Source: Candidatus Latescibacterota bacterium (GTDB lineage: Bacteria; JAAXHH01; JACQVL01). Taken from it: a stretch of 27,270 nt of DNA. The notes beneath the pieces are model-generated. The model ran no database searches, was not told the DNA's origin, and saw only the letters and a list, made by a program, of their open reading frames with translations. The stretch covers positions 1-27,270 of the forward strand of contig JACQVL010000329.1 of assembly GCA_016209865.1 (NCBI GenBank), given 5' to 3'. Numbering within the stretch: the stretch's first letter is position 1; the number at the start of each line of letters is the position of its first letter. Of this stretch, positions 7,321-25,196 are shown one piece after another. The position numbers and the translations under genes are program-made.

Positions 7321-7324
7321 ACGT

Positions 7325-9687: not shown

Positions 9688-10901
9688 ACATCCTGCACCT
9701 GATGCCATACTCCCCCATCCCGCTCCACTTCGGGGGCGCCCTCCGCGTCTACCACCTCCTGAAGGGATTAGTCCGGTCTCACGAGGTGACAGTCGTCAGC
9801 TACGGCACGCCCGAAGACGCCCGTCGGCTGACGGACGAGTTCGGCGGACGATTGAAAGACGTCTACATGCTCCCCCGTCCGTGGCCAGCACGACATCGCC
9901 GGATCGGACAATTCCGCGCACTGTGGACGCCGCACAGCTTCTTCTCCGATCTGCTGCGGAGCGACGCGATGCAACGCACGATCTCGACCCTGCTCGACCG
10001 GTCGGAGTTCGACGTCGTGCAGAGCGAATTCTACATGATGGGCCTGTTTCGCCTCAACACGACGGCGGTCACCATCCTCGATTCGCACAACGTCGAGTAC
10101 GATAATTTCCGGCGGATGTGGCTGAACGCTCACTCTCCTCTGCGAAGGCTGCATTATTACCTGGAATACCAGCGAGTGTTCGCGGAAGAGATCGAGGTCA
10201 GCCGGAAGCACGACGCGATCTTCATCACCTCGGCCCGCGACCGGGCTATCTTAGATGAGCACGTGCCGCAGGTACCGAAATTCGTCATCCCCAACGGCGT
10301 CGATACCGCGTACTTCCAGCCGTCGTCGGACACGCCCGAACCATACTCACTCGTCTTTACGGGCATGATGGCGTACGTGCCGAATTACGACGGGATGCTC
10401 TACTTCCTGGACGAGGTCTTCCCCCGCATCCAGAAGGCGGTGCCGGAGGCGAAGGTGTACATCGTCGGGAAGCGGCCGCCGAAGGAACTGATGCGACGGG
10501 CATCCGACCGGGTGATCGTCACCGGGTATGTGGACGACGTGCGTCCGTTCATCCGGCGCGCGAGCGTGTACGTCGTCCCCCTGCGGATGGGCAGCGGGAC
10601 GCGGCTGAAGGTGTTAGAAGCGATGGCCATGAAGAAGCCGATCGTCACGACGACAGTCGGGTGCGAGGGAATCGATGTCGTCCACGGCGAGTCCGCCCTG
10701 ATCGCGGACGACCCGCAGGCGTTCGCCCACGCCGTGATCGAACTGCTCCATCGCGCCGACCTCCGGCAGACCCTCGTCCGGAACGGGTATGACCTGGTGC
10801 GGTCGTCCTACGAATGGTCGATCATCGGGGAACAGGTGGAGACGGTCTACCAGACGCTCGTCCACCCCGTCCATACCGAGCCAGCGGTGGAGGTCTCCTG
10901 A
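9684..10901 (+). CDS. Glycosyltransferase family 4
   Basis: About 405 residues. It starts [19 protein letters not shown], the nucleotide-sugar GT-B opening with a conserved GG near residue 18, and overlaps the flippase stop by four bases (ATGA). The C-terminal half has the IPNGVD motif, FTGMM, the GYVDDVRPF loop and [19 protein letters not shown] with the conserved E-x7-type retaining GT4 signature, then GCEGI. It resembles the sugar transferases found in exosortase/PEP-CTERM-type polysaccharide loci (family resemblance only; no exosortase is seen here). It should extend the lipid-linked repeat unit in the cytoplasm. Donor sugar cannot be predicted. Confidence 0.9.
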
Positions 10902-10902
10902 G

Positions 10903-11508
10903 ATGACGCTCGCAGCGTTCACGACACGGGTTCGGGGCCGACTGGCTCGCTACTCCCTCTGGGAACACGTTCAGGGCCTCTGGTTCTCCCGCCACTTCAC
11001 GCAGCGTGGGATCATCGTCGTCAGCGGGGGGTGGCCGATGCCGCGCGTCATCAACGACGGGGGAGACCTCATCGCCGGGAACTGCCAGTTCTATTCCGGC
11101 GTCCGGCTGGAAGTGGGCGACGGAGCGGTCCTCCGGATCGGGAACGGCACGTACCTCAACCGGAACACCCTGGTCATCGCCCAGAAGCAGGTGGAGATCG
11201 GGCGTGACTGTCTGATCTCGTGGGATGTCGTCATCATGGACTCTGACCTCCATCCCTCCAACGGAACCGTCAGAGAAGACAAGCCGGTGATCATCGAGGA
11301 TAAAGTGTGGATCGGATGCCGTTGCATCATTCTCAAAGGGGTGCATATCGGGGAAGGCGCCATCATCGCGGCCGGGTCGGTCGTGACGAAGGATGTGCCG
11401 CCGTACGCTCGGGTGGGAGGGGTGCCGGCCCGTCTGCTCGGCGCACCCTGTCCGCAGAGGGGAGAATCGGTCGATGAACCAGCGAGAAACTATTCACTCA
11501 CAGAGTGA
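10903..11508 (+). CDS. Hexapeptide-repeat (left-handed beta-helix) acyltransferase
   Basis: About 201 residues from the ATG at 10903, which follows GGAGG and lies one base after the GT4 stop. Residues ~60-185 show repeating [LIV]-G-x4 units, e.g. [23 protein letters not shown] and [13 protein letters not shown], ending with the GGVPARLLG motif of maltose/galactoside and serine O-acetyltransferases. The likely reaction is O- or N-acetylation of a sugar from acetyl-CoA, with the active unit a trimer. The sequence before residue 45 is basic and non-repetitive. The deacetylase gene starts 35 bases inside its 3' end, suggesting coupled translation. Confidence 0.87.
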
Positions 11509-12352
11509 GGGGAATCCCCGCGCGCTTCGGGTGCTGATGTACCATCGCATCGTCGATGACGCGGACCTCTGTCGTGCGCACTGGACGTCCGTGCACGTCC
11601 GCGATTTTCGCCGGCAGCTCGAATGTCTCGACCGATGGGGGTTCACCACGATCACGTTCGATGATTACCGGCTGTTCCTGGAAGGGGAGTTGAACCTGCC
11701 GAAGAAGCCGGTCATCCTCACGTTCGACGACGGGTACTTAGACACTCATCAGTATGCGTTCCCCCTGCTCCAAGAGTTCGGGATGAAGGCGGTCGTCTTC
11801 GTCCTGGGGAAACGCGCGGTGAAGACGAACGTCTGGGACCGGCCGTTGGGACTGCCCGAGGCTCCGCTCATGGACTGGCAGCACATCATGGAGATGCACG
11901 TCGCGGGCTGTGAGATCGGGGCGCACTCGATGACCCACGCGAAGCTCTCCACTCTCCCTGAACGCGCCGCCTGGTCGGAAATCGCCGATTCCCGGACTGA
12001 ACTGGAGGACTTGCTCAACGCGCCCGTCCTGAGCTTTGCCTATCCGTACGGCGTCGTCGACGGACGGACGAAACGGATGGTCGAGGAGGCCGGGTACCGC
12101 ATCGCCTACAGCGTCGCCACCGGCCCGGCGACGTTCGGGAACGACGCGTACGAAGTCCGCCGGACGACGATCTTCAGCACGACGGGTGTCATCGGGTTTG
12201 GTCTGCGCGTGTTGACGCCGTTCCACTACTATGAATGGCTCCGCTGGAGAACGAAACGGACGTTCGTCCATCCCAACGGGACCCAGGACGGGAACTGGCT
12301 GCCGGGGTGGGAGCAACAGCACCAGCATCCTCAACCGATCGAGACAAGGTAA
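11474..12352 (+). CDS. Polysaccharide deacetylase (CE4/NodB family)
   Basis: About 292 residues. CE4 motif 1 is LTFDDGY (~82-88, catalytic base and metal Asp), motif 2 is HSMTH (~151-155, metal histidines) and motif 3 is FAYPYG (~181-186). It should remove N-acetyl (or O-acetyl) groups from the polymer or from a lipid-linked intermediate. There is no signal peptide, so it probably acts in the cytoplasm on a nucleotide- or lipid-linked sugar; free amino groups made this way could be acceptors for the acyl groups handled by the next genes. The start at 11474 has GGGGAG upstream and overlaps the acetyltransferase gene. Confidence 0.88.
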
Positions 12353-12357
12353 CGATC

Positions 12358-14667
12358 ATGGCGCACAGCATCGACGTGAGAGAGGTTTCGAAGAACTGGC
12401 AGGGGAAGAAAGAGGCCGAACACGGCGAACCGCCCTCCCGGCTGACGATCGACGTCGTCCGCGAGATCGAAGAGTTCTCCGCGTTGCACGATGAATGGAA
12501 CGCCATCGTCACCGCCTCGTCGGCGACGGTGTTCCAGACGTTCGAATGGATGTTCCTGTGGTGGAAACATTTCGGCGCAGACCCGGCGCGCGCCCTGCAC
12601 CTGCTCCTGTTCCGTCACGACGGGCGGCTGGTCGGAGTGGCTCCGTTCTTCCTGGAGACCCACACGTTCGCCGGGGTTCTCCTCCATCGCCGGCTGCGCC
12701 TGCTCGGTTGCGGGGTGGTGCATGATGGGGCGTCCGGTCTGTTCACCGAGTACGGGTCGACCGATTACCTGGACATCATCGGGCTGCCCGACTATGAAAC
12801 GTCGATCACGCATCACTTAGCGGTGTACCTGCAGCGCTCGTCCGCGCTGTATGGCGAAGTCGAGTTCGTGAACGTCCCCCAGGAGAGCCTCGTCGTCCGG
12901 ACGCTCGTCCCTCAGTTTGATCGGCAAGGGGTTCCGTACACCCTGACCCGCTTAGATGTGTGCCCGCGGTTGAATGTCCCGTCCTCGATGGAGGTGTACC
13001 TGCGGGGACGGGGTTCGCGGGTGCGGCACAGCCTGGAACAGGCGCGGAAGACGTTTACCGATGCCACGGTCGAGACGATCTATTCCCCTGAAGCCGTCCA
13101 GGGGGCGTTTCACGACCTCGTCCGGTTGCACCAGCAGCGATGGAATCGTCTGGGATACCTGGGCCTGTTCGCCAACAGCCGGTTTCAGCGGTTCCAGGAA
13201 GAGGTGGCGCGCGTCTTCTTAGAGCGCGGATGGCTGTGGTTTCAGCGCGTCCAGATGAACGGCCAGACGATCGCCGCCCGTCTCGGGTTCGCGTTCAACG
13301 GGTGTTTCTACGACTTTCTGTCCGGGTTCGATGTCGATTCGCCGTTCGCCAAACGCCGGCCCGGACACGTGTTGCTCCTGCGTATGATCGAGGACGCGAT
13401 CAAGACCCAGGGCCGGGTCGTCGACCTCCTGCGCGGGAATGAACGGTACAAGTTCGACCTGACGCCAGACTTCAGCTACAACTGGGGCGTCACGGTGTCC
13501 AACCCGGCGACAGCGCGGAGCGTCCGCGTTCGGCTGTACCACGCGCTGCACGCGTGCGAATCGCTCCTGCGCCGCGTGTCGAAAGAGGGCCTCATCCTGC
13601 GCGTGCACGCGCGAGAACACCGGTTCCCCGCGTTCGTCTTCCGGTACCTCGCGTTCCGGACTCAACGGTTCTTCCAGAACGTGACGCGTGAGCGGGACAC
13701 CGTTCCGCACCCGCCGACAGTCCCACACCTGCTCACGAGTCCGAAGCAATGGGTCTCGCAGCGCATCAAGAACGCGAGCCACCCGCTGGTGAAGAAGATC
13801 GTCAACAGCCTGCAACGGGATCACGACCTCCCGCTCTCGCGGAAACTCTACAAGGGCTTCATCTTCGCGCGTGCGATGTTCCTCGCCGCCCTCTACCTGC
13901 GGCGGTGTAACACCGTGGGCAAGCGAGCGCGGACGCGCGGACGGCCGTACATCGATAACCCTGGCCGCATCGTGGTCGGGGACGATTTCAACTTGAACTC
14001 CCGGATCGTCCGGAGCGAACTGGCCACCGGCCACAAAGGAGTCATCGAGATCGGGGACGAGGTGATCATCAATTTCGGCGCGTCGATCTCCGCCCAGAAG
14101 CTCGTTAAGATCGGGAACCGGGTCCGCGTCGGGCCGTACGCGATGATCATCGACTCGGACTTCCACACCCCGGACGAACGGTATACGATGCCCACCGGGA
14201 AGCCCATCATCATCGAGGATGAGGTGTGGCTGGCCGGTCGGGTCACCGTGCTGAAGGGAACGAAGATCGGAACAGGGTCGGTCATCACCGCCGGGAGTGT
14301 GGTGTCCGGGACGATTCCACCGCATGTCATCGCGGGCGGGGTTCCGGCTCGCGTCATCCGGCATCTGCGGAAGGCCGAGCCCCCGCGTGCGCCGCGTCGT
14401 GAACCCGCGCCCGCCCCGCGGAGCGTCCCCGACCCGGTGACGCAGCGCGTCACGCAGGTCTTCTCCACCATCTTCTCCCTGAACGGCTCGATCGACCCGT
14501 TATGGGGTCCGAAAGACATCGTCCAGTGGGATTCGCTCGGACACATGAACCTCATCGTCGGCCTTGAGACAGAATTCGGCATCTCGTTGACCGAAGACGA
14601 TCTGCTGAACATGCACACCGTGAAGGATGTCTGCCAGATTATCAAGAAATCCGTGGAGGAGGAGTAG
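12358..14667 (+). CDS. Three-domain fusion: CelD/BcsL-type acyltransferase + hexapeptide acyltransferase + acyl carrier domain
   Basis: About 769 residues. Residues ~25-400 match the CelD/BcsL (BioF2-like, PF13480-type) GNAT fold: FQTFEWMFLWW, the QQRWNRLGYLG segment and the FLSGFD...VDLLRGNERYKFDL end. A linker (~400-525) follows. Residues ~525-665 are hexapeptide repeats (VVGDDFNLNSRIV, VWLAGRVTVLKG, IGTGSVITAGSVV) ending in AGGVPARVI. A Pro/Ala/Arg linker leads to a carrier domain (~690-769) with WDSLGHMNLI, where Ser726 is the expected phosphopantetheine site. A carrier domain joined to two acyltransferases suggests the acyl group is held as a thioester and passed to a sugar in cis. A nearby AMP ligase could load it. 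The start has AAGGT nine bases upstream. A single protein with these three parts is unusual. Confidence 0.85.
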   Translation: MAHSIDVREVSKNWQGKKEAEHGEPPSRLTIDVVREIEEFSALHDEWNAIVTASSATVFQTFEWMFLWWKHFGADPARALHLLLFRHDGRLVGVAPFFLETHTFAGVLLHRRLRLLGCGVVHDGASGLFTEYGSTDYLDIIGLPDYETSITHHLAVYLQRSSALYGEVEFVNVPQESLVVRTLVPQFDRQGVPYTLTRLDVCPRLNVPSSMEVYLRGRGSRVRHSLEQARKTFTDATVETIYSPEAVQGAFHDLVRLHQQRWNRLGYLGLFANSRFQRFQEEVARVFLERGWLWFQRVQMNGQTIAARLGFAFNGCFYDFLSGFDVDSPFAKRRPGHVLLLRMIEDAIKTQGRVVDLLRGNERYKFDLTPDFSYNWGVTVSNPATARSVRVRLYHALHACESLLRRVSKEGLILRVHAREHRFPAFVFRYLAFRTQRFFQNVTRERDTVPHPPTVPHLLTSPKQWVSQRIKNASHPLVKKIVNSLQRDHDLPLSRKLYKGFIFARAMFLAALYLRRCNTVGKRARTRGRPYIDNPGRIVVGDDFNLNSRIVRSELATGHKGVIEIGDEVIINFGASISAQKLVKIGNRVRVGPYAMIIDSDFHTPDERYTMPTGKPIIIEDEVWLAGRVTVLKGTKIGTGSVITAGSVVSGTIPPHVIAGGVPARVIRHLRKAEPPRAPRREPAPAPRSVPDPVTQRVTQVFSTIFSLNGSIDPLWGPKDIVQWDSLGHMNLIVGLETEFGISLTEDDLLNMHTVKDVCQIIKKSVEEE

Positions 14668-14669
14668 CG

Positions 14670-15506
14670 ATGCAGACTATGAGAGCCACGAGCCGGGTTG
14701 AAGAGTACGATCTCCGCGCGCGGTATTTGAAGAATGACTATGATATGGCAGGGCGTGGGCGGCTTGAGACGGAGTTTCTGATCAAGCGGCTCATCTCGCT
14801 CGTCCCGTTTGCCCCTGAGGATCGCGTGCTCGACATCGGTCCGGGCAACGGACTGCTGTTCCACCTCCTCCATGCGCGAGTGGCCGAGTGCCACGGGGTC
14901 GACCCCAGCCCGGCGATGATCGAACGGCTCCAGCAGAAATTCCGCTCCTGCCCGAACGTGCAGTTCACCCGCCTCACGTCATCGACTCTGCCGTTCCCCG
15001 ACAAGTCGTTCGAGAAAGTGGTGCTGAGCAGCGTCATCACGTACATGGACGACCGGAACGCCGTCCTCCGCACCCTGTCAGAGGTCAGGCGTGTCTCGAC
15101 GGACGAGGCGGTCATCTTTATCGGAGAGGTGCCGTTTCTCGACGAAGCGCAGGCGCCGCGGCCGCAGCTCCCCTTGTCCGAGCGGCTCCGCCACAAGCTC
15201 CGGGAAGAGGGGATGGTTGAGTTCGTGCGTTCCGCCATCATCAAACTGTCGAAGAAGCTGCGAGTCCTCTTTGGTCGCGAGCCAGCGTTGATCGCGTCAG
15301 ACCACGGCCTCCATTTCAATGAAGAGACATTCCTGATGATGTGCCGCCAGAGCGGGTTTGAGGGCATCGTCATGCGAACCGAAACCCTTCACGGCCTGTC
15401 AAAGTCGCGGAACGACTATCTGCTTCATCCGATCGAGGTTCCAGCAAGCCGGTCGACAGCCGGACAGCCCAGACCTTCTCGCGCGTCACAGGCCACGACA
15501 GCCTGA
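14670..15506 (+). CDS. SAM-dependent class I methyltransferase
   Basis: 278 residues. Motif I is VLDIGPGNG (~53-61) and the acidic end of strand 2 is HGVDPS (~75-80); the LPFPDKSFEKVVLSSVI segment is the usual methyltransferase_11 strand 4 region. GGAGGAGGAG precedes the ATG and the gap from the fusion gene is two bases, so they are translated together. Its place between the carrier-domain fusion and the AMP ligase suggests it methylates either the carrier-bound acyl group or a sugar hydroxyl. The substrate is not predictable. The last ~25 residues are Ser/Ala/Pro-rich and probably disordered. Confidence 0.85.
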   Translation: MQTMRATSRVEEYDLRARYLKNDYDMAGRGRLETEFLIKRLISLVPFAPEDRVLDIGPGNGLLFHLLHARVAECHGVDPSPAMIERLQQKFRSCPNVQFTRLTSSTLPFPDKSFEKVVLSSVITYMDDRNAVLRTLSEVRRVSTDEAVIFIGEVPFLDEAQAPRPQLPLSERLRHKLREEGMVEFVRSAIIKLSKKLRVLFGREPALIASDHGLHFNEETFLMMCRQSGFEGIVMRTETLHGLSKSRNDYLLHPIEVPASRSTAGQPRPSRASQATTA

Positions 15507-15524
15507 ACGCAGGAGACCGAGCCG

Positions 15525-17105
15525 ATGCGTCTCATCCACCAGTATCTTTTAGAAGCCGCCTGCCGGACTCCGGACAAGACCGCCCTGATCTGCGACGACA
15601 AACCGCTCGTCTACGACGCGTTCATCCACCGGATGCAGGCGCTCTCCGGGCTGCTGATCGACGCGGGACTGCGCAAAGGCGACCGGGCGCTGATCGTGAT
15701 CAGCGACAAGATGGATTTTCTGGTGGCCTGCTACGCCGTCATCGCCGCCGGCGGTCTGGCGGTGCCCATCATGGAAGGGGCGGCCGCCGCGACAATCCAG
15801 CAGGTGGCGCACGATTGTACCCCGCAGACGCTGCTTTCCACCTCCCAGGACCTGACGGCCTACCCCGACCTGCGAGAGCGGGTACGCTGCTCGATCATGC
15901 TCCTGGACACGACGGGACCAGCGTCGCCCCACGACCCGTGGCACCGGGCCACGATCGTGCCCCACGATGCCCTGCACCGGGGGAACGGGTCGCTGCGGAC
16001 TCCGGACATCCAGGAGGATGACGGCGCGTTCATCCTCTACACGTCGGGGACGACCGGGAAGAAAAAAGGCGTCCTCTTATCCCACCGGAACCTCATCCAA
16101 TCCACCCTCAACATCAACGAATTCATGGGCATCGATGCGGACATCCGGGAATTCGTCGCCATCCCGCTGACGCATTCGTTTGGGTTTGGACGGAGCCGGT
16201 GCGTGCTCTTCGTGGGCGGCACGCTGGTCGTCACCAACGGGATGTTCAACCCCGTCGCGGCCGTCCAGCAGATGCGGGAGCACCGGTGCGATGCCCTCTC
16301 CTCCGTGCCGTCCGGGTTCGCGTTGTTCTTCGGCCGCATGGAGTCGTCCCTGTGCCGGATCGGCCCGCAGGTCCGGTTCGTCGAGATCGGGAGCGCGCCC
16401 ATGCGCCTCGACCATAAGCTGAAACTGACCGAGGTCTTCCCGAACGCCCGCCTCTGCATGCACTACGGCCTCACCGAAGCCTCGCGCAGCGCGTTCATCG
16501 AGTTTCGGCACGACCGCGACAAACTCGACACCGTCGGGCGTCCCGCCCCGCATGTCGAGATCGCCATCCTCCCCGATCAGGAGCCGGGCGAGAAGGACGG
16601 GCAGACCGGGGAGATCGCCGTCCGGGGCGCGCACGTCGCGGCGGGCTACTGGCAGAACGGGGACCTCAACGCCCAGCGGTTCACCGAAGACGGGTGGTTC
16701 AAGACGGGGGATTACGGATTCCTGGATGAAGACGGCTACCTCCATCTGCTCGGCCGGAAAGATGACATCATCAACATGGGCGGGCTGAAGATCTCACCCA
16801 TCGAAGTCGAGGAGAGCATCCGGACCGCCTATCCCCATTGCGAGGTGTGCGTGGTGGGCATCCCCGACCCGGCGGGCCTGGTCGGGGAGATTCCGGTGCT
16901 CTGCTACGTCTCCAGGGACGGGAGCAGCATCACCCTGCCGGAGTTGTCTCACGCGCTGTCGAGCCGTCTGGATCGGCACAAAATCCCGAGAATCGTCTAC
17001 CGGTTGGAGCAACTGTCCAAGACCGAGAACGGCAAAATCCTGCGGCACGAACTCCGCCGGACCCTGCTCGACGGGGTCGTCCCACAACACGAAAAGAGTG
17101 TGTAG
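15525..17105 (+). CDS. AMP-dependent acyl ligase (acyl-CoA/acyl-ACP synthetase type)
   Basis: 526 residues. ANL-superfamily motifs are complete: YTSGTTGKKKG (P-loop, 172-182), YGLTEASRSA (A5), GEIAVRG, WFKTGDYG (A7), GRKDDIINMGG (A8 hinge) and TENGKILRHEL with catalytic Lys504. It activates a carboxylic acid with ATP and transfers the acyl group to a thiol. In this setting the thiol is likely the phosphopantetheine of the carrier domain in the 12358 fusion or the free carrier at 21486. The A8 and A4 regions look more like acyl-CoA synthetases than amino-acid adenylation domains. It is about the same size as stand-alone fatty-acyl ligases. The acid is unknown. Confidence 0.87.
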   Translation: MRLIHQYLLEAACRTPDKTALICDDKPLVYDAFIHRMQALSGLLIDAGLRKGDRALIVISDKMDFLVACYAVIAAGGLAVPIMEGAAAATIQQVAHDCTPQTLLSTSQDLTAYPDLRERVRCSIMLLDTTGPASPHDPWHRATIVPHDALHRGNGSLRTPDIQEDDGAFILYTSGTTGKKKGVLLSHRNLIQSTLNINEFMGIDADIREFVAIPLTHSFGFGRSRCVLFVGGTLVVTNGMFNPVAAVQQMREHRCDALSSVPSGFALFFGRMESSLCRIGPQVRFVEIGSAPMRLDHKLKLTEVFPNARLCMHYGLTEASRSAFIEFRHDRDKLDTVGRPAPHVEIAILPDQEPGEKDGQTGEIAVRGAHVAAGYWQNGDLNAQRFTEDGWFKTGDYGFLDEDGYLHLLGRKDDIINMGGLKISPIEVEESIRTAYPHCEVCVVGIPDPAGLVGEIPVLCYVSRDGSSITLPELSHALSSRLDRHKIPRIVYRLEQLSKTENGKILRHELRRTLLDGVVPQHEKSV

Positions 17106-17107
17106 CC

Positions 17108-17890
17108 ATGAGCAAGCGACTGGGACATCTCGTGACGACGATCGCGTTCCTCGTCCGGCATCGCCAACTGGCCAGCCTGTGGTCGAGAATCCGGCACAAG
17201 CTCCATTCGGAGACCCTGTCCTTCGGCCTCCGGCGAGACTTGACGATCCCGTTCACGGCGCCCGACGCGAACCTCCCGCTGACCATCCGGCCGCTGGCCG
17301 AGCGGGATATTCCTGTCCTGCTCGGCACGGACGCGCCATCCGGCACGGAGGAGGGCGCCAAAGACCGGACAGCCCGGCGGCTGTTGGTACAGGAGCAGAT
17401 CTCGACCTGCTACGTGGCGGTCACCCCCGACGACCAGCCCTGCTATATGCAGTGGCTGATCGGGTCAGGCGAGAATGAACGCATCCGGACGTTCTTCGCG
17501 GGCGGGTTCCCGCAGCTCGCGCCGGACGAAGCCCTGCTCGAGTATGCGTTCACCCTCGAAGCGTACCGCGGGCAACGGATCATGCCGTGCGCGATGGCCC
17601 AGATCGCCCAGAAGGCGGCGGATTTCGGAGCCCAGAGGGTCATCACCTTCGTCATCCACAACAACATCCCATCCCTGAAGGGGTGCAAGCGTGCGGGCTT
17701 CGTGCCCCATCTGCTGCGGCACGACCGGTGGCGGCTGTTCCGCCGGCGGTTGACGTTCACGCGGCTGCCCGACGGAACCCCGTATCCGTTCGACGTCGAG
17801 CCCCAATCACACGACAGCACCGCGCACCCCAGCCCTGCTCTGGCAGGCGAGGGAACCAGGAGAACCGAGTATGCCAGCGTCCCCTCTTAA
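17108..17890 (+). CDS. GNAT-family N-acyltransferase
   Basis: About 260 residues, starting two bases after the ligase stop. The first ~55 residues are basic and not recognised. Residues ~57-220 look like a GNAT fold: LTIRPLAERDI at the start, LEYAFTLEAYRGQRI (motif A, with the R-G-x-R/G acyl-CoA pyrophosphate loop) and VIHNNIPSLKGCKRAGFVP (motif B, with the N-x-x-S pattern). It should transfer an acyl group from CoA or a carrier protein to an amine. The C-terminal ~35 residues are low-complexity. Its 3' end overlaps the next gene by 20 bases. The context suggests an amino-sugar acceptor. Confidence 0.75.
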   Translation: MSKRLGHLVTTIAFLVRHRQLASLWSRIRHKLHSETLSFGLRRDLTIPFTAPDANLPLTIRPLAERDIPVLLGTDAPSGTEEGAKDRTARRLLVQEQISTCYVAVTPDDQPCYMQWLIGSGENERIRTFFAGGFPQLAPDEALLEYAFTLEAYRGQRIMPCAMAQIAQKAADFGAQRVITFVIHNNIPSLKGCKRAGFVPHLLRHDRWRLFRRRLTFTRLPDGTPYPFDVEPQSHDSTAHPSPALAGEGTRRTEYASVPS

Positions 17891-18893
17891 TCCGACCATC
17901 GAGGTGTTCTCGACCTGCCCGCAATCGAGCGATGTCGACCGGACGGCGTACGTCCAGCGGGTCGTCGACGTTGCCCGCTGGAGCGAGCAGTATGGATACA
18001 AAGGCATCTTAGTGTACACCGACAACCGGCTCGTCGACCCGTGGCTGGTGGCGCACCTCATCATCCAGCAGACGGACGCGCTCTGTCCCCTCGTCGCCAT
18101 CCAGCCGGCGTACATGCACCCGTACTCGGTCGCCAAGATGATCGCCTCCTTCGGCCATCTGTACCACCGGCGGCTGTACCTCAACATGGTGGCGGGCGGG
18201 TTCAAGAACGACCTGACGGCGTTGAACGACACCACCCCGCACGATAAGCGGTACGACCGCTTAGTCGAATACACGCAGATCATCACCGCGCTGCTGACCA
18301 GCCCGTCGGTGAGTTACACCGGCGAGTTCTACACGGTGCACCAGTTGAAAATGACCCCGCCGCTCCCGTCCGACCTGGTTCCCGGCATCTTCATCTCCGG
18401 CTCGTCCGAGGCGGGACTGGCCGCCGCGCGAGCGACCGGGGCGACCGCCGTGCAGTACCCGAAACCCGCGGGCGAGTATACCAGAGAGGAGCTGGAGGGC
18501 ATCCAGAACGCGGGCATCCGGGTGGGGATCATCGCCCGCGAGGATGAAGATGAGGCGTGGAAGATCGCGTACGAGCGGTTTCCTGAGGACCGGCGCGGCC
18601 AGATTACCCATCAAGTGGCGATGAAAACCTCCGATTCCGTCTGGCACCAGCAACTCTCCGACATGGGCGCAGACCCGGACACGAAGCAGACACCGTACTG
18701 GCTGGTGCCGTTCCAGAACTACAAGACGTTCTGTCCGTATCTGGTGGGGAATTATCGACGGGTGGCCGACGAAATCGCCCGGTACATCGCGGTCGGCTAT
18801 ACCACCTTCATCCTGGACATCCCGCCGGATGAAGAAGAATTGTCTCACATCCATACCGTGTTCGAGCACGCGACGTTGGGGGTGGCGGCATGA
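17871..18893 (+). CDS. Luciferase-like (LLM) flavin-dependent monooxygenase
   Basis: 340 residues of TIM-barrel type. Supporting features are IEVFSTCPQSS at strand 1, WSEQYGYKGILVYTDNRL, the LVAIQPAYMHPYSVAKMIAS segment, RRLYLNMVAGG (the usual N-x-V-x-G strand of SsuD/bacterial luciferase relatives) and PGIFISGSSEAGLAAA (phosphate-binding region). These enzymes use reduced FMN and oxygen. LLM enzymes of this kind are also found in non-ribosomal peptide clusters, and the next gene is an adenylation protein. A role in oxidising the amino-acyl group or the sugar is an inference. AGGAG precedes the ATG and the gene overlaps the GNAT gene by 20 bases and the next by four. Confidence 0.82.
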   Translation: MPASPLNPTIEVFSTCPQSSDVDRTAYVQRVVDVARWSEQYGYKGILVYTDNRLVDPWLVAHLIIQQTDALCPLVAIQPAYMHPYSVAKMIASFGHLYHRRLYLNMVAGGFKNDLTALNDTTPHDKRYDRLVEYTQIITALLTSPSVSYTGEFYTVHQLKMTPPLPSDLVPGIFISGSSEAGLAAARATGATAVQYPKPAGEYTREELEGIQNAGIRVGIIAREDEDEAWKIAYERFPEDRRGQITHQVAMKTSDSVWHQQLSDMGADPDTKQTPYWLVPFQNYKTFCPYLVGNYRRVADEIARYIAVGYTTFILDIPPDEEELSHIHTVFEHATLGVAA

Positions 18894-20509
18894 CCTCATT
18901 ACTCCAGCATCTGGTCACGGCTCAGGCGGAGCGGTGGCCTGATGCCCTGGCGGTGGTCATGAATCAGGAGCGTCTGACCTACCGTCAGTTGGACGAAGAT
19001 TCCAACCGGCTGGCGCGGCTGCTCAAAGACGCGGGCTGCCGAAGGGGCGACCGGGTCTGTCTGCTCCTCCCCAAATCGCCCGCCGCCATCGTCGGGATTC
19101 TGGGGATATTAAAGGCCGATTGCCTGTACGTCCCGATCGACCCGTCCAGTCCGGCTGCGCGCGTGGCCAAGATCGTCGAGTCGTGCGAGAACCGGTGGAT
19201 CTTAGCGGCCGGGGCTGTCGCGCCGCTGCTCGACGACCTCCTCGCAGAGGACCGGTTCCGCGCGGCGCTGTCGATCGGCTGGATGGGGCCAGAACGGGCG
19301 GCCGGGCGGCACTTCACCGCCGCGTTCTCGTCGGAGGACGTGCGCGCCTACCCGCCAATGCCTCTGGACGCGCGCAACGTCCCGACGGACGGGGCGCACA
19401 TCCTGTTCACCTCCGGGTCGACCGGGACGCCCAAAGGGGTGGTCATCACCCACGCGAACGTCCTTCATTTCGTGCGCTGGGCGGTCGGGTATTTCGGGAC
19501 GAGCCCGTCGGACCGGATTTCAGGTCACCCACCCCTCCATTTCGACCTGTCGACGTTCGACATATTTGGGACGTTCATGGCCGGCGCCCAACTCCATCTG
19601 GTGCCGCCGGACCTGAATCTGCTGCCGAACAAGTTAGCCGACTTTATCCGCGACTCGGAGCTGACCCAGTGGTTCTCGGTGCCGTCCATCCTGAACTACA
19701 TGACCAAATTCGACGCGGTGCGGCCGAATGATTTTCCGGCGTTGAAACGCCTGCTCTGGTGCGGGGAAGTCTTCCCCACCCCGGCGCTGCGGTACTGGAT
19801 GCAGCGACTCCCCCACGTGGCGTTCACGAACCTCTACGGCCCGACCGAGACGACGATCGCCAGCAGCTACTACACCGTGCCGCGATGCCCGGACGAGGAG
19901 CAAGCCGCCATTCCCATCGGGACGCCCTGCGAGGGGGAAGAATTGCTCATCCTCGACGACGCGCTCCGCCCCGTCCCGCCGGACGAGGTCGGGAACCTCT
20001 ACATCCGGGGGGTTGGACTGAGTCCCGGCTACTGGAGGGACCCGGAAAAAACCCGCGCCGTCTTCCTGCCCAACCCGGCAGACCCGGCGGACCGGGTATA
20101 CAAGACCGGGGATCTGGCCAGAATCGGGTCGGATGGGCTGGTCTATTTCCTCGGACGGGCGGATTCACAGATCAAGAGCCGGGGGTACCGCATCGAGCTC
20201 GGCGAGATCGAATCCGCGTTGAACGCCCTGAACATGCTGCAAGAGTGCGCGGTGGTCGCCATCCAGACGGACGGGTTTGAGGGGGCGGCGATGTGCTGCG
20301 GGTACGTGCCCGAACCGGACGCGGGAGTCACCCCGATGACGCTTCGGAAGGCGCTGAGCACGATGCTGCCCGCCTATATGCTCCCGTCCCGCTGGATGGC
20401 GTTTGAACGGCTTCCGAAGAACGCGAACGGCAAGATCGACCGGCGGGCGCTCAGGGAATGGTTCGCGGTGCCGGTCGACACAGAAGGACGGGCGCAACGC
20501 CCGGTGTAG
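18890..20509 (+). CDS. Stand-alone amino-acid adenylation protein, DltA-like
   Basis: 539 residues; the ATG overlaps the monooxygenase stop (ATGA). Adenylation motifs are all present: LTYRQLDEDSNR (A1), FTSGSTGTPKG (A3, 173-183), FDLSTFDIFG (A4, 218-227), NLYGPTETT (A5), YKTGDLARI (A7), GRADSQIKSRGYRIELGEIE (A8) and NANGKIDRRAL (A10, catalytic Lys515). The Asp of FDLS binds the substrate amine, so it is an amino-acid activator. The LLWCGEVFP segment puts Cys291 where D-alanine ligase DltA has its selectivity cysteine; NRPS domains usually have a small residue there. There is no fused carrier or condensation domain, so it probably loads the free carrier at 21486. Alanine or another small amino acid is a guess. 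Confidence 0.87.
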   Translation: MTSLLQHLVTAQAERWPDALAVVMNQERLTYRQLDEDSNRLARLLKDAGCRRGDRVCLLLPKSPAAIVGILGILKADCLYVPIDPSSPAARVAKIVESCENRWILAAGAVAPLLDDLLAEDRFRAALSIGWMGPERAAGRHFTAAFSSEDVRAYPPMPLDARNVPTDGAHILFTSGSTGTPKGVVITHANVLHFVRWAVGYFGTSPSDRISGHPPLHFDLSTFDIFGTFMAGAQLHLVPPDLNLLPNKLADFIRDSELTQWFSVPSILNYMTKFDAVRPNDFPALKRLLWCGEVFPTPALRYWMQRLPHVAFTNLYGPTETTIASSYYTVPRCPDEEQAAIPIGTPCEGEELLILDDALRPVPPDEVGNLYIRGVGLSPGYWRDPEKTRAVFLPNPADPADRVYKTGDLARIGSDGLVYFLGRADSQIKSRGYRIELGEIESALNALNMLQECAVVAIQTDGFEGAAMCCGYVPEPDAGVTPMTLRKALSTMLPAYMLPSRWMAFERLPKNANGKIDRRALREWFAVPVDTEGRAQRPV

Positions 20510-20518
20510 GGGCTTTTT

Positions 20519-21439
20519 ATGAACGTTCTGCTCGTCGGCGAAGAATCCGCCGGTATTCAGACACTCAGGGCCTTAGCGCGCAGCCCTCACCGGGTGATCG
20601 GGGTGATGGCCTCGCCGTCGAAACAGACGATCGGGGAAGCGACCGTCTGGGCGGTCGCCCAACGCTCAGGCTACCCGGTCTGGCCGGCCGGCCTCGTCAA
20701 AGACCCGGCGTTCGCGGATGAGGTCCGCGGCCGCCAGGTCGACCTCATCCTCAACGTCCACTCCCTGTACCGCATCCATCCGGACGTGCTCGACGCGGCC
20801 CGGGTCGGAGGGTTTAACATGCACCCCGGCCCCTTGCCGCACTACGCCGGCCTGAACACGGTGAGCTGGGCGATCTACAGGGGAGAGCGGGCGTACGGCG
20901 TCACGGTGCACAAGATGGTCGCCGGGATCGACGCGGGACCGATCGTCTACCAGGCGTCCTTCCCCATCGCCGACGACGACACCGCCCTGTCGTTGTACTC
21001 GAAGTGCCTGAAGGCCGGGCTGCCGCTCATCCTTCAACTCCTCGACACGGCCTCGGCCGCCCCCGACGCCCTGCCCCTCATCCCCCAGGACCTGACGAAA
21101 CGCGCCTACTTCGGCAAGGGCACGCCGGAGCAGGGCCGACTCACCTGGTCCCGGCCCGCCCGCGAGGTCGTCAACTTCGTCCGCGCGTGCGATTATTTTC
21201 CGTTTCCATCCCCGTGGGGCTACCCGCGAGCGCGCAGGAACGGGGACGAGATCGCCATCGCGAAAGCGTCCCTGACGGGCCGGCGGTGTGACGCGGCCCC
21301 CGGGACGGTCGGGGCCGCTCAGAGGACAGGAGTCACCATCGCCTGTGCGGACGAATGGCTCTGCCTTCACACCGTCATCCTCAACGGGCAGCGGGTCGAC
21401 GCGGGTGAGGTGCTGAAACCCTCGGAACGGCTCGGCTAA
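20519..21439 (+). CDS. Formyltransferase-family protein (Fmt/ArnA type)
   Basis: 306 residues. The N-terminal ~200 residues fit the formyltransferase Rossmann fold with the catalytic triad Asn100 and His102 in FNMHPGPLPHYAG and Asp138 in AGIDAGPI. A partial C-terminal domain follows (WSRPAREVVNFVRACDYFPF). These enzymes transfer a formyl group from N10-formyl-tetrahydrofolate to an amine: methionyl-tRNA, UDP-4-amino-sugars (ArnA, VioF) or a carrier-bound amino acid (LgrA). Between an adenylation protein and a carrier protein, the last two are the likely substrates. The length is near that of tRNA formyltransferase but the neighbours argue against that role. The ATG follows AGGGG. Confidence 0.83.
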   Translation: MNVLLVGEESAGIQTLRALARSPHRVIGVMASPSKQTIGEATVWAVAQRSGYPVWPAGLVKDPAFADEVRGRQVDLILNVHSLYRIHPDVLDAARVGGFNMHPGPLPHYAGLNTVSWAIYRGERAYGVTVHKMVAGIDAGPIVYQASFPIADDDTALSLYSKCLKAGLPLILQLLDTASAAPDALPLIPQDLTKRAYFGKGTPEQGRLTWSRPAREVVNFVRACDYFPFPSPWGYPRARRNGDEIAIAKASLTGRRCDAAPGTVGAAQRTGVTIACADEWLCLHTVILNGQRVDAGEVLKPSERLG

Positions 21440-21442
21440 GGA

Positions 21443-21465
21443 GGGGCGAGGCACCGGGTCGCCCC
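21443..21465 (+). other. RNA hairpin between the formyltransferase and carrier protein genes
   Basis: GGGGCGA (21443-21449) and TCGCCCC (21459-21465) pair perfectly around a nine-base loop. There is no T-run after it, so it is not an intrinsic terminator. It may protect or process the transcript ahead of the carrier-protein gene. Confidence 0.4.
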
Positions 21466-21485
21466 GGCACAAGAGAGGTCTTGAC

Positions 21486-21752
21486 ATGGTCGAATCGACA
21501 ACATTGTATGATCAAATCGGCGTCCTGTTCTCCGAAACCTTGAACATCGAGGTGCCGTCCACCGAGACCGACCTGGTGGACGCGGGCGTGTTAGATTCCT
21601 TAGCGTTCGTGGAGCTGTTGTTGCATCTTGAACGCACATTCGGGCTGAAGGTTTCGACCGACAGCCTGGAGATCGACAACTTCCGTTCGATCGCCCGGAT
21701 CGCGGACTTTATCACAAGCCGGAATGGCTGGAATGGCCATCACAAGATGTAG
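21486..21752 (+). CDS. Free acyl/peptidyl carrier protein
   Basis: 88 residues, the usual length for ACP/PCP/DltC-type carriers. The core is VDAGVLDSLAFVELLLHLE, with Ser38 in the DSL motif as the expected 4'-phosphopantetheine site. The helix pattern and acidic helix 2 fit the fold. The leading candidates to load it are the adenylation protein (18890) and the AMP ligase (15525). AGAGG precedes the ATG. It is the second carrier in this operon; the first is fused in the 12358 product. It is followed directly by a GNAT-like protein, a probable user of its cargo. Confidence 0.88.
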   Translation: MVESTTLYDQIGVLFSETLNIEVPSTETDLVDAGVLDSLAFVELLLHLERTFGLKVSTDSLEIDNFRSIARIADFITSRNGWNGHHKM

Positions 21753-21765
21753 GAACGAGGCGAGT

Positions 21766-22845
21766 ATGGGGCGAGTTCGGCCATTTATCGTCGATGACAT
21801 TCCGCAGGTCGTCGGCCTGAGCATGCGGTTGTTTCCGAATAGCGCCTGCGTATCCCCGCAGACCCAGCACGAGAGTTTTCACCAGGTCTGTTTTCGCAAC
21901 CCGTGGTACGATGAGGCGCTGCCGTCCCTCGTCCATGAAGAGGAGGATGGCAGGATCACCGGGTTTCTGGGGGTCGTCCCGCGCCGGATGTCGATGCACG
22001 GACAGACGATGCGGGTTGCGGTGAGCCAGCATCTGATGGTCGAGCCGGATCGTCGTTCGACGCTCGCCGGCGTACAGTTGCTCAAGACGTTCCTGTCGGG
22101 CCCGCAGGACCTGTCGATGGCGGATATGGCCGAAGACATCTCCCGCCAGCTCTGGGAGCGGCTGGGCGGCGCGACGGCGCTGCTCTACAGTCTCTACTGG
22201 TGGCGTCCACTCCGGCCGAGTTGTTATGTGCTGTCGCGCGTGGGACGACATCGGGGGCTGGCCCCGTTCGCGCGGGCGGCCATGCCCCTGTGCCGGGTCG
22301 TGGACGCGCTGGCCGCCCGGATTCCGCGGAGCCCGTTCCGCCCGGCCGTCCCGCAGGCGGCGGCCGTTGATCCGACGGTGGAGACGCTGTTAGGGTGTCT
22401 GTCTCGCTTCTCAGAAGACCAGGCGCTCCGGCCGGAGTATGACAGCCATTCGTTATGCTGGCTGCTGGAGCGGGTGACTCAGGAGAAACGGTACGGCGCG
22501 TTGCAGCGAGTCGTCGTCCAGGACGCGAAGCAGAACATCCTCGGCTGGTACCTGTACTATCTGAACCCGGCGGGCATGAGCAAAGTCTTACAGATCGGAG
22601 CGCGGCGTCATGCGCTCGACGGGGTGGTCGATCATCTCGTCTACCATGCCTGGCAGCACGGGACGATCGGCCTGTTCGGGCGGCTGGAGCCCCGGCTGAT
22701 GAACGGGGCGTCGCGGAAGTTTGGTCTCGTCATCCCAGGCTCTCACTGGATGCTGGTACACTCACGCCGCCCTGAATTGCTGCAGACGATCCAGCGCGGC
22801 GAGGCGTTTTTGTCGCATTTAGAGGGCGACCTGGAGCTATTGTAA
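21766..22845 (+). CDS. GNAT-like acyltransferase of unknown substrate
   Basis: About 359 residues from the ATG at 21766 (GAGG five bases upstream); an upstream in-frame ATG at 21724 would overlap the carrier gene. The N-terminal half opens VRPFIVDDIPQVVGLSMRLF and has a GNAT-like strand, GRITGFLGVVPRRMSMHG, then VAVSQHLMVEPDRRSTLAG at the place of motif A. The C-terminal half has a second strand-helix set (RVVVQDAKQNILGWYLYYL), suggesting a tandem GNAT-like fold. It starts 13 bases after the carrier protein, so transfer of a carrier-bound acyl or aminoacyl group is a reasonable guess. The family call is moderate. Confidence 0.65.
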   Translation: MGRVRPFIVDDIPQVVGLSMRLFPNSACVSPQTQHESFHQVCFRNPWYDEALPSLVHEEEDGRITGFLGVVPRRMSMHGQTMRVAVSQHLMVEPDRRSTLAGVQLLKTFLSGPQDLSMADMAEDISRQLWERLGGATALLYSLYWWRPLRPSCYVLSRVGRHRGLAPFARAAMPLCRVVDALAARIPRSPFRPAVPQAAAVDPTVETLLGCLSRFSEDQALRPEYDSHSLCWLLERVTQEKRYGALQRVVVQDAKQNILGWYLYYLNPAGMSKVLQIGARRHALDGVVDHLVYHAWQHGTIGLFGRLEPRLMNGASRKFGLVIPGSHWMLVHSRRPELLQTIQRGEAFLSHLEGDLELL

Positions 22846-22868
22846 CGGAGATGAACGGAGGAGCCCAC

Positions 22869-23153
22869 ATGGGGCCACTGAATACCCGCAACGTGATCAT
22901 CGTCGCGGCTCCGCTCCCGGAGAACACGATCGAGATCCCTATTGTCCGCGTCGGGAGCGAGAGCTTTGAGGACGCGGTCCGTGATGTGATGGCGTACCTG
23001 ACCGACCGGTGCGTGCGCCTGGGCATCCACCGCATCCAGTTTGTGTGTCAAGAGACAGGCCGTTCGGCCGAATGGGTGATGGAGCGTCATCCCGATGCTC
23101 CCTCACGTGATCCCTGGGCATCCACGAAGGAGGCTTCTGATGTGGCATCTTGA
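22869..23153 (+). CDS. Small protein of unknown function
   Basis: 94 residues. The ATG at 22869 is chosen because GGAGGA lies six bases upstream; an ATG at 22851 has no better site. The middle part (RNVIIVAAPLPENTIEIP, then SFEDAVRDVMAYLTDRCVR, then HRIQFVCQETGR) suggests an alternating strand-helix-strand fold. The last ~20 residues are polar. There is no signal peptide or membrane helix, so it is probably cytoplasmic. I do not recognise a family. It overlaps the next small gene by 14 bases, so the pair is probably translated together. Confidence 0.55.
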   Translation: MGPLNTRNVIIVAAPLPENTIEIPIVRVGSESFEDAVRDVMAYLTDRCVRLGIHRIQFVCQETGRSAEWVMERHPDAPSRDPWASTKEASDVAS

Positions 23154-23316
23154 TAACCAGAGCACGGTGACGACCGCGTATCATCTGCCAGAAGAGTTGA
23201 TCCTCAGCCTGGAACAGGCGAGTCTCATCTTCGGGGTCGAGGATGAAGAGATCGTCATTCAAGCGTTGAAAGAGTTTTTCGAGAAACACGGGATTCGCCA
23301 GAGGAGTGGTTCATGA
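23140..23316 (+). CDS. Small ribbon-helix-helix-like protein (possible DNA-binding regulator)
   Basis: 58 residues; AAGGAGG lies six bases before the ATG. The pattern T-A-Y-H-LPEEL (strand), LILSLEQASLIFGV (helix 1) and EDEEIVIQALKEFFEKHG (helix 2) follows the CopG/MetJ/Arc ribbon-helix-helix layout, where LPEEL plus a helix with EALREFLEKH-like spacing is typical. The strand lacks the basic residues most such DNA-binders use, and the loop is acidic, so DNA binding is uncertain. It could be a local regulator or an antitoxin-like partner of the preceding small protein. Its stop overlaps the GH9 start by four bases. Confidence 0.5.
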   Translation: MWHLDNQSTVTTAYHLPEELILSLEQASLIFGVEDEEIVIQALKEFFEKHGIRQRSGS

Positions 23317-25172
23317 TAGGCGTACCCCGTCTCATTCACTATACCTTAGAAAGCATTGGGGCGCTGACCCTGGTGTGTGTGGCAGCGTTGTTCCTCCTGG
23401 ACGCGCGAGGAATGGTTCGGACGGCCAGGCAGCTGGCCTATAAGGTGATCGAGCGGAATCCCGGAGCGAAAGACCGTGTCTTGCAACTGGCGGGATTCTT
23501 CATGATGGTGGATCGGGAGGAGCCAGAGCCACCACAACCGTTGGTGATCGTCGACCAACTGGGCTACCGGCCGGGCGACCCCAAGCTCGCGTTGGTCAAG
23601 GGAGACCACGCTCGTCGATCGTTCGAAGTCGTCAACGCAGCCACGAACAAAGCGGTGTACACCGGGACGATCCAGAGTATGGGGCAGCCGGACGGCAGTA
23701 CCGGGGATATGACCTCTCTCCTCGATTTCACTCCCCTCAACACGCCCGGAACCTACCACCTGCGGATCCCGGGCACGGCGTTGAAGTCGTATGAGTTTCG
23801 GGTTGGGGATGACGTCTATCGAATCGCGGCCTCGTCGACGATCGAGAGCTTCTACTATCAGCGATGCGGGACGGCGGTGGGCAACGGGACGGTCTGGAAA
23901 CACCCACCGTGTCATACCAAGGATGGGGTAGTCCATGACAATCCCTCTGTCTTTAAAGACGTGACCGGCGGCTGGCACGATGCGGGTGATTACGGGAAAT
24001 TCGTCGTCACCGGGGTGGTCAGTGCCGCCTACTTGCTGTACCTGTACGAGCATCAACCGGCGAAGTTTACTGACAGGCAACTCGCCATTCCGGAGGCGCG
24101 GAACGGGACTCCTGACCTGCTCGACGAGGCGCGGTGGGAACTGGCGTGGCTGTTAAAACTGCAGCGAGACGATGGCGGAGTGCCTCATAAAGTGTCCGCC
24201 AAGAAATGGACGGGCAATAATTTGCCCCAGGACGACCCGGATCAACGGTATATTCTCGGCGTGAGCAGCACGGCGACCGCCGGGACGGCGGCTGTGACGG
24301 CGCTGGGGGCTCGGTTGTTCGACAGGTGGGATAAGCCGTTTGCCGCGCGCCTACTCAAGGCGTCCGTCCAGGCGTGGAAGTTTCTCGAAGCCCATCCCGA
24401 CATCGTCCCGCCCGGTGGGTATAAAAACCCGTCCGACGTGATCGGTGGAGACTACGGCGACCGGCGCGATACTGATGAACGGCTCTGGGCCGCCGCCGAG
24501 CTGTACCGGCTCACCGGGGACGACCGGTACCACCAGTATTTCGTCACGCACTATCAACAATGCGGGCTTTACAACTACAACACGATCATCTGGCAGCATG
24601 TCGAAAACTTCGCGTACGCGGCCTACCTGCGCACGACAGAGTATCCGGTAGACAAGACGGTACATGCCGCCTTACTGTCCAACCTCATCAGCCACGGAGA
24701 CCGGCTGCTCAAGCACATCGGGGAGAATCATTACCGCCATATCCTGAAGACCGATGAATACTTCTGGGGGTCGAACAGCCTGGCGTTAGGGTATGCGTTT
24801 GACCTCATCCAGGCGTACACCGCCACCCAACAGCCCCAGTACCTCGAAGGGGCGTTAGACCAGCTCCACTACATGTTAGGCCGGAACACGTTCAATAAAG
24901 TTTTCATCACCGGGGTCGGGTCGAACCCCGTGCGATATCCCTACCATCAATTTTCTATGAAACTCGGTGCAGAAAAACCGGTACCGGGTCTGGTAGTTGG
25001 TGGTCTCAACCGTTATGATGGACCGAACGGACAGGCCCTGTCGGAGTTTCCCGGCAAATGTTATCAAGACAGCAAACAGAACTACTTTGTGAATGAAGTC
25101 GCCATCAATTACACCGCGCCGCTCGCGTTCGTCGCCGGGTACTTTGCCCAATTCAACCCCTCCACTCCGTAA
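23313..25172 (+). CDS. Membrane-anchored GH9 glycoside hydrolase (endoglucanase-like)
   Basis: 619 residues. An N-terminal hydrophobic helix (~14-30) with no clear cleavage site would anchor it with the enzyme in the periplasm. Residues ~76-165 match the CelD_N Ig-like domain (VIVDQLGYRPGDPKLALV). The catalytic GH9 domain has GGWHDAGDYGKF (219-230; Asp223/Asp226 are the base region), GVGSNPVRYPYHQFS at the substrate histidine loop (one arginine of the usual PHHR is replaced), PGLVVGGLN, and FVNEVAINYTAPLAF with the catalytic acid Glu595. GH9 enzymes invert beta-1,4-glucan bonds. In an export locus it may trim or release polymer, as BcsZ does in cellulose loci. The ATG overlaps the preceding stop. 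Confidence 0.88.
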   Translation: MIGVPRLIHYTLESIGALTLVCVAALFLLDARGMVRTARQLAYKVIERNPGAKDRVLQLAGFFMMVDREEPEPPQPLVIVDQLGYRPGDPKLALVKGDHARRSFEVVNAATNKAVYTGTIQSMGQPDGSTGDMTSLLDFTPLNTPGTYHLRIPGTALKSYEFRVGDDVYRIAASSTIESFYYQRCGTAVGNGTVWKHPPCHTKDGVVHDNPSVFKDVTGGWHDAGDYGKFVVTGVVSAAYLLYLYEHQPAKFTDRQLAIPEARNGTPDLLDEARWELAWLLKLQRDDGGVPHKVSAKKWTGNNLPQDDPDQRYILGVSSTATAGTAAVTALGARLFDRWDKPFAARLLKASVQAWKFLEAHPDIVPPGGYKNPSDVIGGDYGDRRDTDERLWAAAELYRLTGDDRYHQYFVTHYQQCGLYNYNTIIWQHVENFAYAAYLRTTEYPVDKTVHAALLSNLISHGDRLLKHIGENHYRHILKTDEYFWGSNSLALGYAFDLIQAYTATQQPQYLEGALDQLHYMLGRNTFNKVFITGVGSNPVRYPYHQFSMKLGAEKPVPGLVVGGLNRYDGPNGQALSEFPGKCYQDSKQNYFVNEVAINYTAPLAFVAGYFAQFNPSTP

Positions 25173-25196
25173 CGCGGAACCGCCGGGAAGACGAGT

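What the first reader, a model, noticed from the sequence alone, without database searches (positions are those of the whole stretch)
12358..22845. Carrier-protein-dependent decoration pathway embedded in a Wzx/Wzy polysaccharide operon
Nine consecutive genes encode two AMP-forming ligases (15525 acyl type, 18890 amino-acid type), two carrier domains (fused at Ser726 and free at Ser38), a methyltransferase, a luciferase-like monooxygenase, a formyltransferase and three acyltransferase-type proteins. This is an NRPS-like toolkit without condensation or thioesterase domains. The gaps of 0-20 bases and overlaps show it belongs to the polysaccharide operon. The inferred product is a sugar carrying an acid- or amino-acid-derived group made on a carrier and moved by GNAT or hexapeptide enzymes. 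I know of pieces of this (DltA/DltC, ArnA, Qui4N acylation), but not of this full set together.
Basis: partly seen in the sequence, partly recalled or inferred. Interest (0 to 1): 0.85.

Follow-up and report, generated by a model that had tools for sequence, protein, structure and literature searches.

The report
Glycine-on-carrier decoration cassette in polysaccharide operon
A sugar-polymer operon carries a small, mobile set of genes, found in at least a dozen bacterial phyla, that probably loads glycine onto a carrier protein, oxidises it, caps its nitrogen with a formyl (elsewhere acetyl) group, and passes it to a sugar, a surface decoration that I could not find described.

Summary
The nine genes exist as described (12358-22845, co-directional, gaps -20 to +46 bp), inside a Wzx/Wzy operon. 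The strongest part is 17871-22845: LLM monooxygenase, amino-acid ligase, formyltransferase, free carrier, large GNAT. The LLM's relatives occur at 73 loci in at least 12 phyla; the ligase gene directly follows the LLM gene in 63 of 74, usually overlapping by 4 bases. Free carrier and GNAT9 often follow. The ligase pocket (DLFSLCLIAK) is nearly invariant even across two very divergent ligase clades and matches AlmE, the glycine ligase of Vibrio lipid A modification, better than DltA. Formyltransferase and an unrelated 170-aa GNAT never share a cassette and swap between near relatives; one locus fuses formyltransferase to the LLM. I infer: glycyl-carrier, oxidised by the LLM, N-formylated (or N-acetylated), then moved to a sugar by the NMT/Eis-like GNAT9. 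The exact product, perhaps hadacidin-like N-formyl-N-hydroxyglycyl, is inference. Polysaccharide genes flank about half of the loci (37/73 against 4/20 random stretches), so the cassette is a building-block module used in glycans and also elsewhere. The upstream half (FemX-hexapeptide-carrier fusion, methyltransferase, acyl ligase, GNAT) seems specific to this genome and remains unassigned.

The parts
12358..14667 (+). fusion: FemX-like GNAT + left-handed beta-helix (hexapeptide) acyltransferase + C-terminal carrier domain (Ser726)
   Evidence: hexapeptide-carrier fusion not seen in 297 other genomes searched
14670..15506 (+). SAM-dependent methyltransferase, target unknown
15525..17105 (+). 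AMP-forming acyl ligase (acyl type), may load the fused carrier
17108..17890 (+). GNAT-type protein (GNAT1), weak Pfam match; relatives only in L018 and L064
17871..18893 (+). luciferase-like (LLM) flavin monooxygenase, core of the conserved cassette; related to SsuD by sequence but SsuD His228 is Gly in all 71 relatives
18890..20509 (+). free-standing amino-acid adenylation enzyme, pocket DLFSLCLIAK, predicted glycine (AlmE-like)
20519..21439 (+). formyltransferase (ArnA/Fmt type, Asn-His-Asp conserved in 15 of 15), N-cap
21486..21752 (+). free carrier protein (Ser38; Ser conserved 53 of 53)
21766..22845 (+). GNAT9: tandem-GNAT acyltransferase, predicted fold like N-myristoyltransferase and Eis-type enzymes; likely transferase to the sugar (start at 21724 or 21766)

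Best explanation
The 3' half (17871-22845) is a portable carrier-protein cassette that makes a modified glycyl group and hands it to a sugar of the polysaccharide. The ligase (18890) activates glycine and loads it on the free carrier (21486). The LLM (17871), fed FMNH2 by a flavin reductase, oxidises the carrier-bound glycyl unit. The formyltransferase (20519) caps the nitrogen; relatives use an acetyltransferase-like GNAT instead. GNAT9 (21766), a two-lobed GNAT of the NMT/Eis fold, transfers the acyl group from the carrier to an amine or hydroxyl of a nucleotide- or lipid-linked sugar before Wzx flips the unit and Wzy polymerises it. Because glycine offers only its nitrogen and alpha carbon, the likeliest products are N-formyl-N-hydroxyglycyl (a hydroxamate, the acyl form of hadacidin; about 0.35) or N-formyl-alpha-hydroxyglycyl (about 0.25). 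Shown by sequence: gene set, order, co-inheritance, pocket residues, catalytic residues. Inferred: substrate, all reactions, order of steps, acceptor. The 5' half (12358-17890) probably attaches a second, methylated acyl group by a second ligase and carrier; this is weakly supported.
For: Recurrence: 73 loci in at least 12 phyla; LLM followed at once by the ligase in 63, median -4 bp; cap gene and carrier overlap or abut. Distances of LLM, ligase, carrier, FT and GNAT9 correlate (Mantel r 0.59-0.82, 0 of 2000 permutations; relatedness not removed). Glycine: pocket nearly invariant in both divergent ligase clades; alignments show Ser278, Cys301, Leu322, Ile330, Ala331 shared with AlmE (4oxi), while DltA has Thr322 and Val330 and PltF-type lacks Cys301; AlmE Leu248/Cys316 set glycine choice (PMC11253843). 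N-cap: FT and the 170-aa GNAT in 0 of 44 complete cassettes together (13 and 16; Fisher p 0.0007, relatedness not removed) and swapped between nearest relatives. FT-LLM natural fusion in L059. Flavin reductase gene inside cassette L072. LLM acting on carrier-bound thioesters has a precedent in MupA (PMC10952193). GNAT9 fold Z about 21 to NMTs, 3.3 A to an Eis-like enzyme; GNAT9 also occurs beside another ligase. Glycan genes enriched.
Against: About half of the loci show no glycan marker by my partial set; some look like small-molecule clusters (P450, HDO, NRPS neighbours). 15-16 of 44 cassettes have neither FT nor the small GNAT. ArnA-like FTs usually act on sugar amines, so FT may formylate the sugar. 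Glycine specificity is read from about ten residues. No structure or assay touches the LLM reaction. The GNAT9 acceptor is unknown; cassettes without GNAT9 exist.
Confidence: 0.6

Rival explanations
1. The cassette makes a free small molecule (or lipid/peptide cap) and its place in the polysaccharide operon is incidental.
For: Some loci have P450, haem-oxygenase-like enzyme, carbamoyltransferase, ABC exporter and few or no glycan genes (L060, L061); distant LLM relatives (38-48% identity) sit in NRPS-like clusters with halogenases and acyl-CoA dehydrogenases.
Against: In the window the cassette is packed between Wzx/GT genes and GH9/GT2 genes with gaps of at most 46 bp and no promoter- or terminator-like sites beyond chance; glycan markers flank 37/73 loci against 4/20 controls; several are whole XrtA-like EPS loci (L027, L035, L047, L120).
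Confidence: 0.2
2. Formyltransferase and small GNAT act on an amino sugar (N-formyl or N-acetyl amino sugar), as ArnA, VioF or FdtC do, and the LLM-ligase-carrier route adds a separate aminoacyl group.
For: Best solved relative of 20519 is ArnA; FT/GNAT alternation is common for amino sugars (own knowledge).
Against: A sugar aminotransferase (DegT family) marker is near only 1 FT locus and 1 small-GNAT locus; the cap gene sits between or beside ligase and carrier with overlaps; FT is fused to the LLM in L059.
Confidence: 0.15
3. The ligase loads D-alanine (Dlt-like), so the group is an oxidised, formylated D-alanyl.
For: DltA shares Ser278, Cys301 and Ala331 and, by the review, the Leu after the first Asp; TIGR01734 240 bits over model positions 142-500.
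Against: Leu322 and Ile330 follow AlmE, not DltA (Thr, Val); the review links such a Leu-to-Thr change to making room for D-Ala (PMC11253843); DltA cut-off (560 bits) not reached.
Confidence: 0.15

Closest known systems
AlmEFG glycylation of Vibrio cholerae lipid A
   Same: free glycine ligase with the same pocket residues (Leu, Cys, Leu, Ile, Ala) and a free carrier, acyl moved to a surface glycan-lipid
   Different: no LPLAT-type AlmG; adds an LLM oxygenase, an N-cap enzyme and a tandem GNAT; sits in a Wzx/Wzy operon
Dlt D-alanylation of teichoic acids (DltABCD)
   Same: ligase plus free carrier, amino acid put on a surface polymer
   Different: no DltB/DltD among the nine; pocket leans to glycine; oxidation and capping before transfer
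XrtA/PEP-CTERM EPS loci (TIGR03098 ligase, TIGR03108 amidotransferase)
   Same: AMP-ligase and carrier genes inside Wzx/Wzy-type EPS loci; the cassette occurs in several such loci
   Different: window ligases score 242 and 263 bits against a 592 cut-off; no LLM or FT is part of that known set
Hydroxamate routes (PvdA/PvdF, hadacidin)
   Same: flavin N-oxygenase paired with formyl- or acetyltransferase (own knowledge)
   Different: oxygenase is an LLM, substrate would be carrier-bound glycine, product would be polymer-bound
MupA and LLM domains of PKS/NRPS (TIGR04020)
   Same: LLM acting on carrier-bound thioesters
   Different: 17871 product does not match TIGR04020; free cassette without KS or C domains

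Membership tests
AlmEFG | glycine-type pocket of AlmE (Leu248, Cys316 equivalents) | tested here: met
AlmEFG | separate carrier with attachment serine | tested here: met
AlmEFG | AlmG LPLAT acyltransferase in the set | tested here: not met
   no such domain among the nine products
Dlt system | ligase above the DltA cut-off | tested here: not met
   240 of 560 bits
Dlt system | DltB and DltD partners | tested here: not met
   none among the nine products
SsuD alkanesulfonate monooxygenase | catalytic His228 and family cut-off | tested here: not met
   Gly in 71 of 71; 119 of 510-518 bits
TIGR04020 natural-product LLM | match to the model | tested here: not met
   no match at E 0.01
XrtA/PEP-CTERM EPS ligase TIGR03098 | score over cut-off | tested here: not met
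   242 and 263 of 592 bits
XrtA/PEP-CTERM EPS locus | exosortase gene | not tested
   not looked for in the rest of the genome
NRPS | condensation or thioesterase domain | tested here: not met
   none in the nine products
Hydroxamate pathway | N-hydroxylation of the amine | not testable with these tools
   reaction of the LLM cannot be read from sequence

The most novel reading that the evidence does not exclude
A widespread, horizontally mobile pathway puts carrier-made N-acyl-N-hydroxyglycyl groups (hydroxamates, hadacidin-like) on exopolysaccharide sugars, giving bacteria an iron-binding or antimetabolite-bearing matrix; the LLM would be a new kind of carrier-dependent glycine N-oxygenase.
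Probability: 0.25. Interest if true: 0.85.

Novelty: new variant of a known kind. Interest (0 to 1): 0.62.

Why it matters
Carrier-dependent aminoacyl decoration of surface polymers is known from Dlt and Alm only in simple form. This would be a version with oxidation and N-capping on the carrier, spread through soil and groundwater phyla with little surface chemistry known. It gives a concrete, cheap test: five small soluble proteins, a predicted substrate (glycine) and a predicted product mass. It also gives a function to an unnamed LLM subfamily and to GNAT9, and if the group is a hydroxamate, polymers that bind iron.

Tried and rejected
LgrA as nearest ligase relative: its 497 bits are two domains summed, each about 245, so no glycine argument from it. 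Proline (PltF has the best single pocket alignment, 126 bits): rejected because Cys301 and the 322-331 residues differ. SsuD-like desulfonation: active-site His, Cys54 and Tyr331 equivalents are replaced. A nine-gene conserved unit: rejected. Apparent co-occurrence of FT and small GNAT in L031: a clustering artefact, the 400-aa protein does not match the GNAT family. Literature searches for the combination gave nothing; only open-licence papers are covered. GNAT9 has no sequence relative among solved structures. Promoter/terminator scan: no more than chance.

Full report
What is there. The window is a whole contig (G000:C296) of an 83% complete genome. Nine co-directional genes at 12358-22845 lie between Wzy/WecG/Wzx/GT4/hexapeptide/deacetylase genes (5761-12352) and a GH9 hydrolase and EpsU-like GT2 (23313-26429).

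The conserved part. Of 191 genomes searched, only one besides the window's own had the LLM (two copies, 64% identity); the 15 other genomes of the window's order had none. A scan of 84,980 species genomes found 73 loci in at least 12 phyla. Calling genes and matching them shows one repeated order: LLM, amino-acid ligase (next gene in 63 of 74 loci, median overlap 4 bases), then often a cap gene (FT or a 170-aa GNAT) and the carrier, then GNAT9 (about 24 loci). Members' distances correlate, and the ligase tree mixes phyla (23 changes where 9 would suffice), so the cassette probably moves as a unit. The correlation test does not remove common ancestry, and bins can hold foreign contigs.

Substrate. 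The ten pocket positions read DLFSLCLIAK in the window and vary little in more than 60 ligases, including a clade only about 250 bits similar (mostly DLHSLCLIAK). Direct alignments show AlmE (4oxi) sharing Ser278, Cys301, Leu322, Ile330 and Ala331; DltA shares Ser278, Cys301, Ala331 but has Thr322, Val330; proline ligases lack Cys301. The review PMC11253843 gives AlmE Leu248/Cys316 as the glycine-selecting pair and a Leu-to-Thr change as part of what makes room for D-Ala in DltA. Glycine is therefore the best guess, D-Ala the runner-up.

Cap and oxygenase. FT keeps Asn-His-Asp in 15 of 15, the carrier its serine in 53 of 53. FT and the small GNAT exclude each other (13, 16, both 0, of 44; p 0.0007 without correction for relatedness), and the window (FT) nests with L017/L025 (GNAT) and L078 (FT). 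In L059 FT and LLM are one protein. Both facts fit N-capping of the same carrier-bound glycyl unit that the LLM oxidises. The LLM is no SsuD: His228 is Gly in all 71 relatives; His83, His124, Trp258, His259 and Cys288 are invariant or nearly so. A flavin reductase lies in cassette L072. MupA shows that LLM-type enzymes can hydroxylate carrier-bound thioesters at the alpha carbon (PMC10952193). With glycine as substrate, the choice is N-OH (then formyl or acetyl: a hydroxamate, as in hadacidin and siderophore routes, own knowledge) or alpha-OH on an already N-acylated glycyl. I lean to N-OH, weakly.

Transfer. GNAT9 (22 aligned) is predicted with pLDDT 88 as a tandem GNAT, Z about 21 to N-myristoyltransferases (5 A) and 20 to an Eis-like acetyltransferase (3.3 A). 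In other genomes a GNAT9 stands beside a TIGR03098-like ligase and TIGR03108-like amidotransferase instead, as if it takes acyl groups from different carriers. A fold does not show the acceptor.

Context. Markers of glycan assembly occur at 37 of 73 loci, 23 of 41 long ones, against 4 of 20 random 20-kb stretches from seven of the same genomes, two of which lie on contigs that carry a cassette (p 0.012 and 0.007). L027, L035, L047 and L120 are EPS loci with XrtA-like parts. Others look like small-molecule clusters. The marker models come from the test loci, so the enrichment is approximate.

The rest of the block. The hexapeptide-carrier fusion was not found in 297 genomes of the phylum of L018 and the acyl ligase has no close relative in the window's own phylum. 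Azospirillum loci (L070, L084) do have a second carrier and acyl ligase upstream of the cassette, so two-carrier loci recur, with other parts.

Verdict. Observation confirmed; interpretation partly supported and sharpened: a probably glycine-specific, oxygenase-containing, N-capping carrier cassette. Product and acceptor are unproven.

Noticed in passing
L059:8981-11017: Natural fusion of formyltransferase and LLM in one reading frame.
   Followed up: partly
L121:3334-9376 and L123: GNAT9-like gene with TIGR03098-like ligase, TIGR03108-like amidotransferase and an NAD-synthase-like gene (L121): a second carrier cassette without LLM; L070 has a similar set next to an LLM cassette.
   Followed up: partly
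L060:5630-9525, L061:5866-9704: NodU-type carbamoyltransferase and a haem-oxygenase-like iron enzyme just before the LLM cassette; carbamoyltransferase genes lie near the cassette at about 16 loci.
   Followed up: no
L096, L097, L098, L099: Distant LLM relatives on plasmids beside ligases, carriers, P450 or tryptophan-type halogenase, acyl-CoA dehydrogenase and PPTase.
   Followed up: no
window 7000-23000: G+C is 62-66% in the decoration block and 57-59% in much of the EPS skeleton, in line with separate origin.
   Followed up: no
window 22851-23153: 100-aa ORF after GNAT9 with no family match.
   Followed up: no
L022:3848-7322: Three ligase-like reading frames in a row, as from a duplication or frameshift.
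   Followed up: no
window 23313-25172: GH9 cellulase-like gene beside Myxococcus-EPS-like Wzx, Wzy and GT2 genes.
   Followed up: no
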